From positions 1-32,633 of the IMG/VR virus record IMGVR_UViG_3300041955_001672: a stretch of DNA of 32,633 nt; one strand, given 5' to 3'. The DNA is from a virus. The translations under genes and the position numbers were made by a program. A model generated the notes under the pieces. The model saw nothing but the letters and a program-made list of their open reading frames with translations. It searched no databases and was not told the DNA's origin. This document shows, one piece after another, positions 424 through 18,829 of the stretch (its first letter is position 1; every line of letters begins with the position of its first letter).

Positions 424-499
424 TGGTGGGCCGTCGGGGGCTCGAACCCCAAACCTAGTGATTAAGAGTCACTTGCTCTACCAATTGAGCTAACGGCCC
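424..499 (-). tRNA. tRNA-Lys (anticodon CUU)
   Basis: Read on the - strand, the sequence folds as a complete cloverleaf. The 7-bp acceptor stem is GGGCCGT/ACGGCCC, the D arm is GCTC...GAGC, the anticodon stem is AGTGA/TCACT with loop CTCTTAA (anticodon CTT, lysine), and the T arm carries TTCGAGC. The discriminator base is A, and the 3' CCA is encoded in the DNA. The length is 76 nt including CCA. The tRNA 3' end points away from the phage cluster, and no duplicate of the 3' end was seen near the cluster's right side, so there is no sign that it served as the integration site. Confidence 0.97.
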
Positions 500-3779: not shown

Positions 3780-3808
3780 AATAGTGCGGCAGGAGGCATA
3801 GAGCAGGT

Positions 3809-3879
3809 ATTAGGGAATAGCGGTTAGGGGTCAGGATTTAGTCTTTTCTGATCCCTGATCCCTAATCCCTAATCCCTGA
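3809..3879. repeat. Heptad stem-loop H4
   Basis: The left arm (ATTAGGGAATAG, TTAGGGGTCAGGAT) and the tandem right units (TGATCCC, TAATCCC) are complementary. It lies directly upstream of terL and leaves no obvious Shine-Dalgarno for the terL start. Confidence 0.8.
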
Positions 3880-3886
3880 ATTTAAA

Positions 3887-4795
3887 ATGCTGACTCTCAA
3901 ACAAAAATTCACCCAGGCGGAGTTTCAAAGGCGGGCCGATGAGATCTTAGGCCGGCTGTTCCGGGAGGTCACCGCCTTTGGGGACGTGAGCGAATCCGCC
4001 AAAAAGGCGCGGCGCGCCCGGAGTATGTCCGACCCCTTCGCCTTCTTCACCACCTATCTCCCCCATTATTTCTCCCAGGAGTTCGCGCCCTTTCATCACG
4101 AGCTGGTGTCGCTTTTGGAGCGGCGGCCCGGCGAAAAAGATGTAGGGGCGGCGTCCCGCCGCCCTGGGCGGGGAAACCCCGCCCCTACGACGGAAAACGC
4201 TGTCCTGACTCCCGTCGTGGTGGCCGCGCCCCGGGAGTTCGCCAAGACCACCATCACCTCCTTCGGCTACGTGCTCCACCAGATCTGCCACGGCCTGCGC
4301 CACTTCATCATCATCGCCTCCGACACCGAGGACCTGGCCAGCGACCTCACCGGCTATCTCTACCTGGAGCTGCTCCACAACGAGCGCCTCAAGTGCGATT
4401 TCGGCGAGTTGGTCCGGGACCACTGGGCGGTGGACGATTTCGTCACCCTCACCGACGTCCGGCTCAAGGCCCGGGGCCGGGGCCAGCGCCTGCGCGGCCT
4501 GAAGCACAAACAGCATCGCCCCGACCTGATCGTCCTGGACGACGTGGAGAACGACCAGCAGGCCAAATCCCCGGACCTGGTCAAGAAGCTGCTCTCCTGG
4601 ATCACCGGCGCGGTCTATCCCGCCATCGAGGCCTCGGGCTCGCTCTTCTGGATCGGCACCATACTGGCCCGCAAGAGTGCCCTCTATACCGCGATACACT
4701 CCGAGGAGGAGCCCTGGAAACACTGGACCCGCAGGATCTACCGTGCACTCAATGAAGCAAGCAGTGAGCAGCAAGCAGTGAGCAGGAAGCAGTAA
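3887..4795 (+). CDS. Terminase large subunit, ATPase half
   Basis: This is the N-terminal packaging-motor domain of TerL (302 aa before a stop). The Walker A-like loop is APREFAKTT (114-122), Walker B with catalytic Glu is LIVLDDVE (214-221), and the coupling motif IGT is at about 257. ATP hydrolysis here would drive DNA into the prohead. Residues 85-101 (VGAASRRPGRGNPAPT) are encoded by GC-rich palindrome G2, which sits in frame just before Walker A. The reading frame ends in a TAA inside heptad array H5. The nuclease half continues in the same frame only 3 nt later, so one in-frame stop splits an otherwise continuous TerL of about 560 codons. No strong ribosome binding site precedes ATG 3887. 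Confidence 0.88.
   Translation: MLTLKQKFTQAEFQRRADEILGRLFREVTAFGDVSESAKKARRARSMSDPFAFFTTYLPHYFSQEFAPFHHELVSLLERRPGEKDVGAASRRPGRGNPAPTTENAVLTPVVVAAPREFAKTTITSFGYVLHQICHGLRHFIIIASDTEDLASDLTGYLYLELLHNERLKCDFGELVRDHWAVDDFVTLTDVRLKARGRGQRLRGLKHKQHRPDLIVLDDVENDQQAKSPDLVKKLLSWITGAVYPAIEASGSLFWIGTILARKSALYTAIHSEEEPWKHWTRRIYRALNEASSEQQAVSRKQ
4142..4188. repeat. GC-rich double palindrome G2 inside terL
   Basis: Two adjacent palindromes (GGGGCGGCGTCCCGCCGCC and GGCGGGGAAACCCCGCC) are framed by GTA...TAC. It lies in the coding frame of the terminase ATPase domain and adds about 16 residues without breaking it. Confidence 0.9.
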
Positions 4796-4840
4796 GCAGT
4801 GACGGCTCACAGCTCACGGCTCACGGCTCACGGCTCACTT
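4756..4840. repeat. Heptad stem-loop H5 interrupting terL
   Basis: Left units of the GCAGTGA/AGCAAGC type (4756-4803) are followed by right units GCTCACG repeated four times (4804-4840); the two arms are complementary. The array lies between the TerL ATPase and nuclease domains and contains TAA at 4793-4795, the only stop separating them. Confidence 0.9.
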
Positions 4841-5569
4841 GTCTCTCTGTGGCCCTCCCGGCACCCGGTGCCCACGCTCCTGGAGCAGAAGCGCCTCATG
4901 GGGTCGCTCGCCTTCAATCGGGAGAAGCAGAACGACCCCGTGGACGAGGAAGGGTTCTTCCAGGAGGCCTGGTTTCGGTTTTACCATCCCGCGGACCTCA
5001 GCGGCAAGGACCTGATCGTGGCGGGGTTCTTCGACCCCTCCATCGGCACCGGCGAGACCGCGGATTATAAGGCTGTCCTCACCGTGGGGCTGGAGCGCCG
5101 GGAGATGATTTTCTACGTCCTGGACGCTTACATCCGCCGGGGTACCCTGGACGAGGCGTTGCGCGCCGCCTTCATCCGCCACGAGCAATGGAACTACTGG
5201 CTCTTCGGGGTGGAGGACAACCTTTTTCAACGCCTGCTGCTGCGGGAGTTCGACCGGCTGAGTAAAGAGCGGGGCGTCGTCCTGCCGGTCCGGGGCGTCA
5301 CCGCCAGGACCGCCAAGGAGACCCGGATCTCCCGGCTTTCGGCCCTGGTGGAGCGGGGCCAGATCCGCTTCTGCCGGGGCCGGGGTAACCAGGACCTGCT
5401 CCTGGAGCAGCTCCTCTATTTTCCGGCCAAAACCGTGCACGACGACGGCCCCGACGCCCTGGAAGGCGCCGTGGGGCTCCTGGAGGGTGGCGCCGGCATG
5501 GGGATCTTCGATTATTACAAAGGGGAGTTTGACACAATGGTGGCCGAGGAGCGCAGGCTGCATGGATAG
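4799..5569 (+). CDS. Terminase large subunit, nuclease half
   Basis: This is the C-terminal RNase H-like nuclease of TerL, which cuts concatemeric DNA during packaging. After about 15 repeat-derived residues the normal TerL linker resumes (LWPSRHPVPTLLEQKRLMGS). It is followed by nuclease motif I GFFDPSIG (D79), motif II FGVEDN (E139) and motif III DDGPDALEG (D216/D219). The possible start is GTG 4799, inside the heptad array and without a Shine-Dalgarno, 3 nt after the TAA that ends the ATPase half in the same frame. It may be made by stop read-through or reinitiation, or not at all if terL is dead. A sequencing or assembly error at the TAA is also possible. The domain itself is intact. Confidence 0.85.
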   Translation: MTAHSSRLTAHGSLVSLWPSRHPVPTLLEQKRLMGSLAFNREKQNDPVDEEGFFQEAWFRFYHPADLSGKDLIVAGFFDPSIGTGETADYKAVLTVGLERREMIFYVLDAYIRRGTLDEALRAAFIRHEQWNYWLFGVEDNLFQRLLLREFDRLSKERGVVLPVRGVTARTAKETRISRLSALVERGQIRFCRGRGNQDLLLEQLLYFPAKTVHDDGPDALEGAVGLLEGGAGMGIFDYYKGEFDTMVAEERRLHG

Positions 5570-5663
5570 TTATCAGTTATCAGTGATCAGTAATCAGTAA
5601 AGGCAAATATAAGGACAAAATCTCCTGACCACTGACCACTGATCACTGATCACTGGTCACTGG
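5570..5663. repeat. Heptad stem-loop H6
   Basis: Left units (TATCAGT, GATCAGT, AATCAGT) and right units (ACTGACC, ACTGATC, ACTGGTC) are arranged around an A-rich centre. It starts at the base after the terL stop and fills the gap to the portal gene. Confidence 0.9.
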
Positions 5664-5681: not shown

Positions 5682-7196
5682 ATGGCTGCCGAACCTAAAA
5701 GCTTACCGCTGACCCCGGAGATCATCAGCGCCGTCCAATGGGCCGCGGGGCGCCGCTTTACGCCCACCGGCACGGGCGCCGCGCCGGGGCAGCCGGACCC
5801 GAGCCAGGATTTCTTCGGGCCCGGGCTGCCCCTGCCGCCCCTGGCCCCCCCCTCCGCCGCCGGCCGCCAGTTCGACTACCCGGTGGGCTACAATCTGCTA
5901 GTCACCCCCCGGGGCGACCTGCCCATCTCGTTTCTGGATCTTAGGAACCTGGCCCAAAACTGCGACCTGGTGCGCCTGGTGATCGAGACCCGCAAGGACC
6001 AGATCAGCAAGATGGGTTGGACCGTGTCCCCCATAGAGTATGGTTCAAAGTTCAAAGTTAAAAGTTCAAAGTTAAAAAGCAAAAAACCTTCTGCGGAGGC
6101 GGAGGGCCAGGCCAAAGAGGCCACCGCCCTCCTGAAGCGCCCCGACGGGATGCACTCCTTCAACGCCTGGATGCGGATGCTCCTGGAAGACATGCTGGTG
6201 ATCGACGCGGCCACCCTCTACCCCAGGCTAACCCGCGGGGGCAGCCTCTATGCCCTGGAGGTGGTGGACGGCGCCACTATCCGCCCCATCGTCGATGAGG
6301 GCGGCCGTACCCCGCTCCCTCCGGCCCCGGCCTATCAGCAGATCATCAAGGGCCTGCCGGCCACCGACTACACCCGGGAGGAGCTGCTCTATTATCCCCG
6401 CAACCTTTTGAGCTGGCGCATCTACGGCTTCTCGCCGGTGGAGCAGATCATCATCATCACCAACATCATCCTGCGGCGCCAGATGCACCTCCTGCAATAC
6501 TACACCGACGGCAACCTGCCCGACGCCCTGATGGAGGTGCCGGAGAACTGGTCCACCGCCCAAATCGCCGAGTTCCAGCAATACTGGGACGCCCTGCACG
6601 CGGGCAATACCGCCCAGCGGCGCCGGGGCAAATGGGTGCCCCACGGCATGACCCCGCACCTGATGAAGGAGGGGGATCTGAAGTCCCCCATCGACGAATG
6701 GTTCGCCCGGGTGGTGTGCTACGCCTTTTCGGTGTCGCCCCAGCCCTTCGTGCAGACGATCAACCGGGCCACCGCCGAGACTGCCCAGGAGGCGGCCCTG
6801 AGCGAGGGGCTGGCGCCCCTAATGGAATGGATGGCGGACTTCATCAACTACGTCCTCCAGGGCTTCGGGTTCGACCAGGTGGAGTTCGTCTGGGAACAGG
6901 ACACCGCCATCGACCCCCAGGTGCAGGCCCAGATCGACGACCTGGACGCGCGCAATGGCATCAGGCTGCGGAGCGAGATCCGGGCCTCCCGGGGCCTGGA
7001 GGACGACGGGACCCCGGATTTCATCATGACCGCCCAGGGGGCGGTGCTGGTGAGCGAGATCGGCAAGGAGAGTAGTGGCACAGGCGTCTCGCCTGTGGCG
7101 CCTCCGGAAGAGGAAACGCTTCCGGAAGAGGAAGCGGCGGCGGAAGGCAAAGGGCAAAAGGTAGATTGGCCCCTTAGCAGAGACAAAATACGGTAA
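5682..7196 (+). CDS. Phage portal protein
   Basis: The predicted 504-aa portal would form the dodecameric DNA channel at the capsid vertex. Supporting features are the position right after terL, the length, and portal-like blocks: LAQNCDLVRLVIETRKDQI (89-107), a helical stem region with LRRQMHLLQYYTDGNLPDALMEVP, and FSVSPQPFVQTINRATAETAQ, the conserved portal crown/wing signature. The N-terminal 60 residues are Pro/Gly-rich and probably disordered. Residues 121-135 (GSKFKVKSSKLKSKK) come from an in-frame heptad array. The C-terminal tail contains a palindrome-encoded GTGVSPVA and a Glu-rich stretch. The start is ATG 5682, with only a weak ribosome binding site (GGGAAATAAATA). Confidence 0.88.
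   Translation: MAAEPKSLPLTPEIISAVQWAAGRRFTPTGTGAAPGQPDPSQDFFGPGLPLPPLAPPSAAGRQFDYPVGYNLLVTPRGDLPISFLDLRNLAQNCDLVRLVIETRKDQISKMGWTVSPIEYGSKFKVKSSKLKSKKPSAEAEGQAKEATALLKRPDGMHSFNAWMRMLLEDMLVIDAATLYPRLTRGGSLYALEVVDGATIRPIVDEGGRTPLPPAPAYQQIIKGLPATDYTREELLYYPRNLLSWRIYGFSPVEQIIIITNIILRRQMHLLQYYTDGNLPDALMEVPENWSTAQIAEFQQYWDALHAGNTAQRRRGKWVPHGMTPHLMKEGDLKSPIDEWFARVVCYAFSVSPQPFVQTINRATAETAQEAALSEGLAPLMEWMADFINYVLQGFGFDQVEFVWEQDTAIDPQVQAQIDDLDARNGIRLRSEIRASRGLEDDGTPDFIMTAQGAVLVSEIGKESSGTGVSPVAPPEEETLPEEEAAAEGKGQKVDWPLSRDKIR
6043..6083. repeat. Heptad array H7 inside the portal gene
   Basis: Tandem TTCAAAG / TTAAAAG units of the same family as the intergenic array H2 lie within the portal reading frame and encode a Lys/Ser-rich peptide of 7-residue period. 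Confidence 0.85.
7075..7099. repeat. Short palindrome G3 inside the portal gene
   Basis: GGCACAGGCG-TCT-CGCCTGTGGC is a near-perfect inverted repeat at the 3' end of the portal gene, in frame. It resembles the other GC-rich palindromes in use but not in sequence. Confidence 0.65.
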
Positions 7197-8432: not shown

Positions 8433-9896
8433 ATGCAAAAAATCATGTTCGCCCAATTCGTCAAGGTCAATGAAGCCACCGGGGAGTTTACCGGCATCGC
8501 CGCGGAGGAGATCCCCGACCAGGCCGGGGAGATCTTCGACTACGAGGCCAGCAAGCCCTTAATCAAGGCCTGGTCGGATGATTCCTTTGAGCACAGCGGC
8601 GGCAAATCCCGGGGCAACCTCCGGGCCATGCACGACCCCAAGCGGGCCGCGGGCCTGCTCACCGCCATCAACTTCAATGATGAGTTGAAGCGCGTCGAGG
8701 TCAGCGGCCAGGTGGTGGATACCGAGGAGCTGGCGAAACTGACCAAAGGCGTCTATACCGGGCTGTCCTTCGGCGGCTCCTACGCCTGGCGCAAGCAGGA
8801 GGGCATCCACGTGCGCTACGCCGCCAAACCCGTGGAGCTGTCCCTGGCCGACAAGCCCTGCGTCCCCACCGCCCGCTTCACCCTGGTGAAGGCCGACGGC
8901 TCCGAGGTGGAGATGGGCTTTGAAAAAGTTGCGGCCCGGGCCGACACCGACCCCAAGGAAGGCGAGAAGAAATACGGGGACGTGAAGTTCGCCGACGAGA
9001 AGAACAAGAAATATCCCATCGACACCGAGAAGCACATCCGGGCAGCCTGGAACTACATCAATAAGGCCAAAAACGCCGCCAAATATGACGCTGAGGACCT
9101 GAAGACCATCAGGGGCAAGATCATTGCCGCCTGGAAGGAGAAGATCGACAAGGAAGGGCCGCCCTCTGCGGAGAAAACCGTAGGGGCCGGCTCTGCCGGC
9201 CCGGGCGGCGGAACGCCGCCCCTACAAAAGGGCCTCTACACAGTGAGCTATTTTGCGCAGATGATCGAAAGCCTCACCGACCTGGCCAACAGCGTTGACT
9301 GGGAGGCGGCCGCCGAGATGGACGACTCGCCGCTCCCCGGGCAATTCAAGGAATGGCTGGCCTCGGGCTGCGAGATCCTCAAGGCGATGGCCGCCGAGGA
9401 GCTGGACGAGCTGCTCAGCGACTTGAGCAAGGCCGTAGGGGCCGGCTCTGCCGGCTCGGGCGGGGAAACCCCGCCCCTACAAAAGGCCGGCGCCCGCCAC
9501 AGCAAAGCCGACCAGGACCATATCCAGGCGGTCCATGACCATTCCGTCGATCTCGGGGCCGATTGCGGAGGCGCGGAGAAGGCCGCGGGGGGGCGGGTAA
9601 AACCCGCCCCTACAGAAGATCTGGCCAAGACCCTGGAGGAACGGACCCAAGCGCTCTCGAAACTCGAAACTCGGAACTCGGAACTCGAAACCGACCTGGC
9701 CAAGATCTCCGGCGAAAAGGAGGCCCTGGCCGCCGAAGTGGAAAAGCTCAGGGCCGAGCCGGCCCCGGCCAAGGGCGCCCTCAAGGCGGTCCCCAAGGAA
9801 GGGGATACTCTGAATAAGACCACTGAGACCGAGGAGCCCCGGACCGCCCTGGATGAGGTGGTGGCGGCCCGGCAGAAGCCGTTCTTAATCAAGTGA
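8433..9896 (+). CDS. Prohead protease fused to scaffold-like C-terminus
   Basis: This 487-aa protein comes just before the capsid gene. The N-terminal 165 residues look like an XkdF/S78-type head maturation protease: a His in AMHDPKRAAG (H67) and a Ser in VYTGLSFGG (S112) fit the His/Ser catalytic pattern. Residues about 185-235 (KKYPIDTEKHIRAAWNYINKAKN, then AEDLKTIRGKI) match the DUF6582 module often found in these proteases. The C-terminal third is Glu/Ala/Lys-rich coiled coil (about 400-450), typical of an internal scaffold that is degraded during maturation. Three GC-rich palindromes and one heptad array are in frame in the C-terminal half, adding peptides such as VGAGSAGSGGETPPLQK. The start is ATG 8433 after CCGGAGATTAT. 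Confidence 0.82.
   Translation: MQKIMFAQFVKVNEATGEFTGIAAEEIPDQAGEIFDYEASKPLIKAWSDDSFEHSGGKSRGNLRAMHDPKRAAGLLTAINFNDELKRVEVSGQVVDTEELAKLTKGVYTGLSFGGSYAWRKQEGIHVRYAAKPVELSLADKPCVPTARFTLVKADGSEVEMGFEKVAARADTDPKEGEKKYGDVKFADEKNKKYPIDTEKHIRAAWNYINKAKNAAKYDAEDLKTIRGKIIAAWKEKIDKEGPPSAEKTVGAGSAGPGGGTPPLQKGLYTVSYFAQMIESLTDLANSVDWEAAAEMDDSPLPGQFKEWLASGCEILKAMAAEELDELLSDLSKAVGAGSAGSGGETPPLQKAGARHSKADQDHIQAVHDHSVDLGADCGGAEKAAGGRVKPAPTEDLAKTLEERTQALSKLETRNSELETDLAKISGEKEALAAEVEKLRAEPAPAKGALKAVPKEGDTLNKTTETEEPRTALDEVVAARQKPFLIK
9180..9225. repeat. GC-rich double palindrome G6 inside the protease/scaffold gene
   Basis: GGGGCCGGCTCTGCCGGCCC plus GGGCGGCGGAACGCCGCCCC are bounded by GTA...TAC, in frame. Confidence 0.9.
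9435..9480. repeat. GC-rich double palindrome G7 inside the protease/scaffold gene
   Basis: It has the same left half as G6 (GGGGCCGGCTCTGCCGGC) but a different right half (GGGCGGGGAAACCCCGCCC). It is in frame and encodes almost the same peptide as G6. Confidence 0.9.
9590..9613. repeat. GC-rich palindrome G8 inside the protease/scaffold gene
   Basis: GGGGCGGG-TAAAA-CCCGCCCCTAC lies in frame and encodes GRVKPAPT. Confidence 0.85.
9656..9692. repeat. Heptad array H8 inside the protease/scaffold gene
   Basis: Tandem AACTCGA/AACTCGG units are in frame and encode SKLETRNSELET, a 7-residue-period peptide lying within the coiled-coil region. Confidence 0.8.
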
Positions 9897-18610: not shown

Positions 18611-18829
18611 ATGAAAATTGCCCTGATTTCATTCTTCTGCTATGCGGTCGGCCTGCTTTGCGGCTTTGTCCTGGCCGCCGTGCTGGGGGCCAGGGCCGCG
18701 GCCGCTTACGGCGAGCGCCTGCGGCGCCAGATTGCCGAGGAGGCCCTGGAGCACGATTACGGAACCTTGGATTCGCCTTTGACTTCAACCGCAAACCGCA
18801 AACCGCAAACCGCAGACCGGCCCTTATGA
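18611..18829 (+). CDS. Small single-pass membrane protein
   Basis: The 72-aa protein has one hydrophobic segment (ISFFCYAVGLLCGFVLAAVLG, about 5-27), then a basic cytoplasmic-type helix (RLRRQIAEEAL). The last 15 residues (TSTANRKPQTADRPL) are encoded by a GCAAACC heptad array, so the native C-terminus may have been shorter. The start is ATG 18611 after GGGAGACTCGCC; GTG 18593 is an alternative. The stop overlaps the ATG of the DUF2163 gene (ATGA), suggesting translational coupling. Function unknown; a membrane tail-accessory or lysis-related role is possible. Confidence 0.55.
   Translation: MKIALISFFCYAVGLLCGFVLAAVLGARAAAAYGERLRRQIAEEALEHDYGTLDSPLTSTANRKPQTADRPL
18788..18820. repeat. Heptad array H18 at the 3' end of the TM gene
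   Basis: Tandem GCAAACC/GCAGACC units, read in frame as the C-terminal tail of the preceding gene and ending 6 nt before the next start codon. Confidence 0.75.

What the first reader, a model, noticed from the sequence alone, without database searches (positions are those of the whole stretch)
4756..4840. Heptad repeat inserted in terL creates the only stop splitting ATPase and nuclease halves
Both halves lie in the same frame (3887-4795 and 4799-5569); TAA at 4793-4795 is the only interruption, and it is inside array H5. All recognised ATPase and nuclease motifs are intact on either side. This could be a dead terminase, a two-chain terminase, or a stop that is read through or followed by reinitiation at GTG 4799.
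Basis: partly seen in the sequence, partly recalled or inferred. Interest (0 to 1): 0.7.

Follow-up and report, generated by a model that had tools for sequence, protein, structure and literature searches.

The report
Terminase gene broken by repeat cassette
In a bacterial virus, a short repeat that sits in a floppy hinge of the DNA-packaging enzyme has changed length so that a stop signal falls in frame, and relatives show that this hinge, one other loop and many gaps between genes keep trading unrelated repeats, often at the cost of a working packaging gene.

Summary
terL is one frame, 3887-5569, with a single stop, TAA 4793-4795, inside a 90-nt inverted heptad cassette between the ATPase and nuclease halves. 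Of 11 window genes compared with relatives, only terL is interrupted. Relatives show what the cassette is. Distant ones have an intact gene with a 12- or 36-nt hinge there. In the close clade the hinge (site 2) and a loop before Walker A (site 1) carry different repeats in different lineages: heptad hairpins, GTAGGGGC palindromes and others. Inserts keep the reading frame far more often than chance, and both sites are the only internal very-low-confidence segments of the TerL model. The TAA letters already exist, out of frame, in the related open array of L008; length differences (+11 and +7 nt) put them in frame. terL is broken in 7 of 11 genotypes by independent lesions, the neighbouring portal gene in none. 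Most likely this is a recently inactivated terL allele, produced by fast turnover of translated repeat cassettes. A two-chain terminase is possible but disfavoured: T4 gp17 loses translocation when its domains are separated. The swapping of unrelated repeats at fixed in-frame sites in essential phage genes is the interesting part.

The parts
3887..4795 (+). terL, N-terminal and ATPase part, up to the in-frame TAA
   Evidence: phrog_38 249-470, E 1e-38; ORF
4799..5569 (+). terL, nuclease part, same frame, ends at TAG
   Evidence: phrog_38 486-709, E 1.1e-42; Pfam Terminase_6C
4754..4843 (+). Site 2: hinge cassette, 90 nt in the window; 12 nt (36 in some) in distant relatives
   Evidence: conserved-block comparison; AlphaFold pLDDT below 50 at the equivalent residues 305-322 of L009
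4757..4801 (+). left arm of the cassette, AGTGAGC-type heptads
   Evidence: TRF; hairpin
4802..4838 (+). right arm of the cassette, GCTCACG-type heptads, reverse complement of the left arm
   Evidence: TRF; hairpin
4793..4795 (+). in-frame TAA; same letters occur out of frame in L008
4799..4801 (+). GTG, possible reinitiation codon; AGGA 11 nt upstream
   Evidence: whether it is used could not be tested
4118..4198 (+). Site 1: in-frame loop insert before Walker A, a GTAGGGGC...CCCCTAC palindrome (4142-4188) plus one GGAAAAC unit
   Evidence: pLDDT below 50 at residues 84-116 of L009
6038..6085 (+). in-frame GTTCAAA heptad insert in the portal gene, replaced by a GTAGGGGC palindrome in L022 and L024
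3842..3882 (+). CCCTAAT-type heptads just upstream of terL; one unit fewer than in L024, L022 and L003
5568..5662 (+). intergenic heptad hairpin that starts at the terL stop codon

Best explanation
In this phage clade terL has two loop sites that accept short repeat cassettes as translated, in-frame inserts: one before Walker A and one in the hinge between ATPase and nuclease. The cassettes, mostly heptad hairpins and short palindromes, are replaced or change heptad number faster than the flanking gene diverges. In the window's allele a change in array length put TAA letters, which also exist out of frame in a related open array, into frame and so cut the chain at the hinge. I infer that this terL no longer makes a working one-chain motor (null or nearly so) and that the event is recent. 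Shown: the stop, the swapping, the frame bias, the shared TAA letters, and repeated independent lesions in terL. Inferred: loss of function, recency, and whether slippage or recombination between arrays caused the length change.
For: Same array type at the same site is open in L008-L011 and L016. The TAA-bearing unit is shared with L008; the window has 11 more nt before it and 7 more after. Six to seven different repeat kinds at site 2, and swaps also at site 1, in portal and between genes, with near-identical flanks. 19 of 23 distinct intragenic insert alleles keep the frame, p 1.7e-6. Both sites are the only internal segments of pLDDT below 50. GGAAAAC copy number at site 1 is 4 in L002 (open), 3 in L012 (frameshift), 1 in the window (open). 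terL broken in 7 of 11 genotypes against 0 of 11 for portal, Fisher p 0.004. T4 gp17 domains separated at the hinge lose translocation (PMC9958956).
Against: All other compared window genes are intact, so the phage is not generally decayed. On the window's own branch the nuclease block has 5 synonymous and 0 non-synonymous changes, which fits continued use, or a very recent break. The nuclease frame is kept across the array despite the stop.
Confidence: 0.6

Rival explanations
1. Two-chain terminase: the ATPase chain ends at TAA, the nuclease chain restarts at GTG 4799 by coupled reinitiation 3 nt downstream, and the two chains assemble on the portal.
For: Both domains are complete and the cut falls in the hinge. 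TAA and GTG are 3 nt apart with AGGA 11 nt upstream. Nuclease codons conserved on the window branch, 5:0.
Against: In T4 the separated domains lose translocation (PMC9958956). GTG and its upstream signal are weak and lie in a repeat not conserved in relatives. No relative carries the same split at this stop.
Confidence: 0.14
2. Assembly or sequencing artefact: the array length or the base is wrong in the contig and the real gene is open.
For: One record only; no second record of the genotype could be found. Similar heptads occur at many places in the genome. All other compared genes are intact.
Against: A one-base error is not needed: the TAA letters recur in the L008-type arrays of several records. 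The 90-nt cassette is shorter than a typical short read (general knowledge). Other broken terL alleles recur in separate assemblies, for example L003-L005 and L012/L013.
Confidence: 0.12
3. Phase-variable locus: heptad gain and loss reversibly switches terL on and off in the population.
For: Heptad number at site 1 differs between sister lineages, and 4, 3 and 1 units give open, shifted and open frames. Several terL lesions lie at the repeat sites.
Against: Variation seen only between lineages, and L012 also differs from L002 by a 3-nt change at site 1. Arrays are short and imperfect. L008-L011 and L016 carry the same site-2 array in five records. The window's stop would need a multi-unit change to be undone.
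Confidence: 0.09
4. Readthrough or recoding of the TAA, giving one full chain.
For: The reading frame is preserved across the array and downstream codons are conserved.
Against: TAA is the commonest terminator of the window's genes (12 of 24). Relatives have a TAG or frameshifts instead, so no common recoding would mend them.
Confidence: 0.05

Closest known systems
Microdiversity loci, short variable segments replaced at fixed sites (Touzain et al. 2010, PMC2884548)
   Same: 20-500 bp segments, replacement rather than simple insertion or deletion, many inside genes without breaking the frame
   Different: Described in three bacterial species and mostly not repeats; here nearly all variants are repeat cassettes, in a phage, and the hinge of TerL is a target
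Heptanucleotide arrays of Geobacter metallireducens (PMC2700814), Xanthomonas and Nostoc (PMC4692102)
   Same: Tandem 7-nt units between and within genes; five-unit arrays that loop back on the other strand in Geobacter; extensive length variation between close relatives in Xanthomonas
   Different: Many different heptads in one genome, replaced by non-heptad palindromes at the same sites; unit sequences differ; Geobacter ones were proposed as regulator sites
Rickettsia palindromic elements and GTAG/CGTC REPs (PMC3733652)
   Same: Palindromic repeats found inside open frames and abutting stop codons
   Different: In the GTAGGGGC palindrome here GTAG pairs with CTAC, whereas REP tags are unpaired; no transposase link tested
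T4 gp17, D6E, HK97 and Sf6 large terminases
   Same: ATPase plus RNase H-like nuclease joined by a hinge; fold matches
   Different: Here the hinge carries a translated repeat of 33-90 nt, and the chain is interrupted in the window

Membership tests
Tailed-phage large terminase (TerL) | ATPase and nuclease halves both match TerL profiles | tested here: met
   phrog_38 for both halves, Terminase_6C for the second
Tailed-phage large terminase (TerL) | Two-domain TerL fold | tested here: met
   Foldseek of the open L009 orthologue to HK97, Sf6, D6E and T4 terminases
Tailed-phage large terminase (TerL) | Both domains on one uninterrupted chain | tested here: not met
   TAA 4793-4795 in the window; met in L002, L006, L009, L014
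Two-chain (split) terminase | Own start signal and product for the nuclease chain | tested here: inconclusive
   GTG 4799, AGGA at 11 nt; product not testable here
Heptanucleotide repeat arrays | Tandem 7-nt units above chance | tested here: met
   27-29 arrays against 0 simulated
GTAG REP | GTAG tag unpaired next to the stem | tested here: not met
   GTAG of the 4142-4188 palindrome pairs with CTAC; definition from PMC3733652
GTAG REP | Associated RAYT transposase | not tested
   no host genome was found
Phase-variable repeat locus | Unit-number variation that toggles the reading frame | tested here: inconclusive
   seen between lineages at site 1; not testable within one population without reads
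Microdiversity locus | Different segments at one site with conserved flanks | tested here: met

The most novel reading that the evidence does not exclude
The two TerL loops act as repeat-based switches: 7-nt length changes and cassette exchange reversibly break and restore the packaging motor in phage or prophage populations, so that DNA packaging is phase variable.
Probability: 0.1. Interest if true: 0.75.

Novelty: new variant of a known kind. Interest (0 to 1): 0.47.

Why it matters
Unrelated repeat families trade places at fixed, in-frame sites of essential phage genes while the flanks barely change (synonymous divergence about 0.02-0.05 in the ATPase and nuclease blocks between the window and L012). 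That gives a countable system for how short repeats spread and are tolerated, and it offers a reason why terL, normally a hallmark gene, is often broken in this clade. It also cautions against calling such phages intact or defective from one contig.

Tried and rejected
Genome collections: two scans found no relative, so the host is unknown. Rfam shows only a tRNA, no intron or known RNA element. Nothing points to an intein or intron: the insert is a 90-nt repeat. A search for the exact left junction found no second record of the window's genotype; one for the right junction found only the L008-type records. A reassigned code was rejected on stop usage. There was no PDB sequence match to the TerL profile. 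A single point mutation as origin of the stop was considered and set aside, because L008 has the same TAA letters. The apparent portal 'stop' in L012/L013/L024 was set aside: the ORF there is 500 aa against 513 in L022, so it appears to be only a shorter C-terminus. Literature searches on heptad repeats in this group of bacteria found nothing direct.

Full report
Check of the observation. The window is a whole 32,633-base virus record. Translation of 3800-5600 gives one frame from ATG 3887 to TAG 5567-5569 with a single stop, TAA 4793-4795. The parts before and after it match adjoining stretches of the same terminase profile, phrog_38 249-470 and 486-709. The array is a pair of inverted heptad arms, (AGTGAGC)n and (GCTCACG)n; by comparison with relatives the insert is 4754-4843. 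Seven-periodic arrays occur 27-29 times in the window and never in ten simulated sequences; most lie between genes, and several start right at a stop codon and form hairpins.

Orthologues. A viral-contig search gave 20 close loci and a profile search 80 loci, of which about 67 are more distant. In the more distant ones terL is a single uninterrupted frame in the blocks compared; in those tabulated the hinge has 12 or 36 nt and site 1 mostly 12-30 nt, except L029 and L042, which have longer in-frame inserts at site 1. Inside the close clade two places carry inserts. Site 2, the hinge, holds AGTGAGC heptads in the window and in L008-L011 and L016; a GGTGGGCAGTGCCCACC-type insert in L006, L007 and L017; GGCACAGGCGTCTCGCCTGTG in L003-L005 and L014; CGGAAAA heptads in L018 and L019; CCCTAAC-like heptads in L015; and a GCGGCAAGATGSCGCCCCTAC form in L002, L012 and L013. 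Site 1, before Walker A, likewise holds GTAGGGGC palindromes or heptad hairpins. The same swapping is seen in the portal gene and in intergenic gaps. For example, the portal insert is GTTCAAA heptads in the window and L028 but a GTAGGGGC palindrome in L024, although the window's portal region is about 98% identical to L024 and about 91% to L028.

Frame and structure. Of 23 distinct insert alleles at three intragenic sites, counted by hand keep the frame (p 1.7e-6 against one third). Some alleles are related by descent, so this p-value is approximate. The AlphaFold model of the open L009 TerL has internal segments of pLDDT below 50 only at 84-116 and 305-322 (besides the two end regions), which are site 1 and site 2. 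Its fold matches D6E, HK97, Sf6 and T4 terminases. So the inserts are, as far as can be inferred, translated loops that a working TerL tolerates.

How the stop arose. AGTGAGC-type heptads carry a stop trinucleotide in each unit, and every third unit falls in frame. In the window the two in-frame slots read CAA (4772) and TAA (4793). The open array of L008 has the same GCAGTAAGCAGT letters out of frame; the window has 11 more nt before them and 7 more after, 18 in all. Thus the stop needs no base change relative to that array, only a change of array length or a recombination between arrays. Which of these happened is not known.

Consequence. terL is broken in 7 of 11 genotypes of the clade (window; L012/L013; L003; L004/L005; L015; L018; L019) by at least five different lesions, while portal appears intact in all. 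Genotypes are not fully independent: L003 shares its TAG with L004/L005, and L018 its site 2 with L019. Several of these alleles recur in separate assemblies, so they are not all assembly errors. Yet codons remain conserved: the ratio of non-synonymous to synonymous divergence is roughly 0.08-0.25 in most close-clade comparisons, and the window's own branch has 5 synonymous and no non-synonymous changes in the nuclease block. Broken terL alleles are therefore young, or are replaced by exchange with intact ones, or the nuclease half is still used. For T4 gp17 the separated domains keep ATPase and nuclease activity but lose translocation (PMC9958956), so a chain cut at the hinge is most likely non-functional for packaging. 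Reinitiation at GTG 4799 is possible but has only a weak upstream signal.

Known relatives of the phenomenon. Replacement of short segments at fixed sites is known as microdiversity (PMC2884548). Heptanucleotide arrays are known in Geobacter, Xanthomonas and Nostoc (PMC2700814, PMC4692102). In-frame palindromes are known from Rickettsia and REP families (PMC3733652). The palindrome here is not a GTAG REP by its definition, because GTAG is inside the stem. In the papers searched I found no description of unrelated repeat kinds replacing one another in frame in a phage terminase; the library covers only open-licence papers and my searches were few.

Limits. No reads, no host genome, one record of the window's genotype. 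Loss of function, recency and the mechanism of cassette exchange are inferences.

Noticed in passing
window 6038-6105 (portal gene): A third in-frame insert site, in portal: GTTCAAA heptads in the window, L028 and L014, GTAGGGGC palindromes in L022 and L024, no repeat in L003, L005, L062 and L026; all lengths are multiples of three.
   Followed up: partly
L042 terL site 1: A more distant relative carries yet another in-frame insert (72 nt) at the same site before Walker A, and L029 a GTAGGGGC palindrome there.
   Followed up: partly
L003, L004, L005 terL nuclease part: The same TAG (VDE*GFF) in three records with two different N-terminal backgrounds and neighbours intact.
   Followed up: partly
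L037, L038, L044: Seven-periodic arrays reach 18-20 per 10 kb, about twice the window's density.
   Followed up: no
L026:11860-14290 (+), L027 likewise: The ORF that covers portal is 809 aa, much longer than the 500-513 aa of other relatives; possible fusion.
   Followed up: no
window 427-499 (-): A tRNA gene near the left end of the record.
   Followed up: no
L100-L107: AGCAGTRAGC heptads followed by AAARGC, the same array-and-loop form, occur in further virus contigs such as IMGVR_UViG_3300014153_000277.
   Followed up: no
window 18781-18823 and 9652-9695: ACCGCAA and CTCGAAA heptad arrays lie inside open tail-region and 487-aa genes without breaking them.
   Followed up: no
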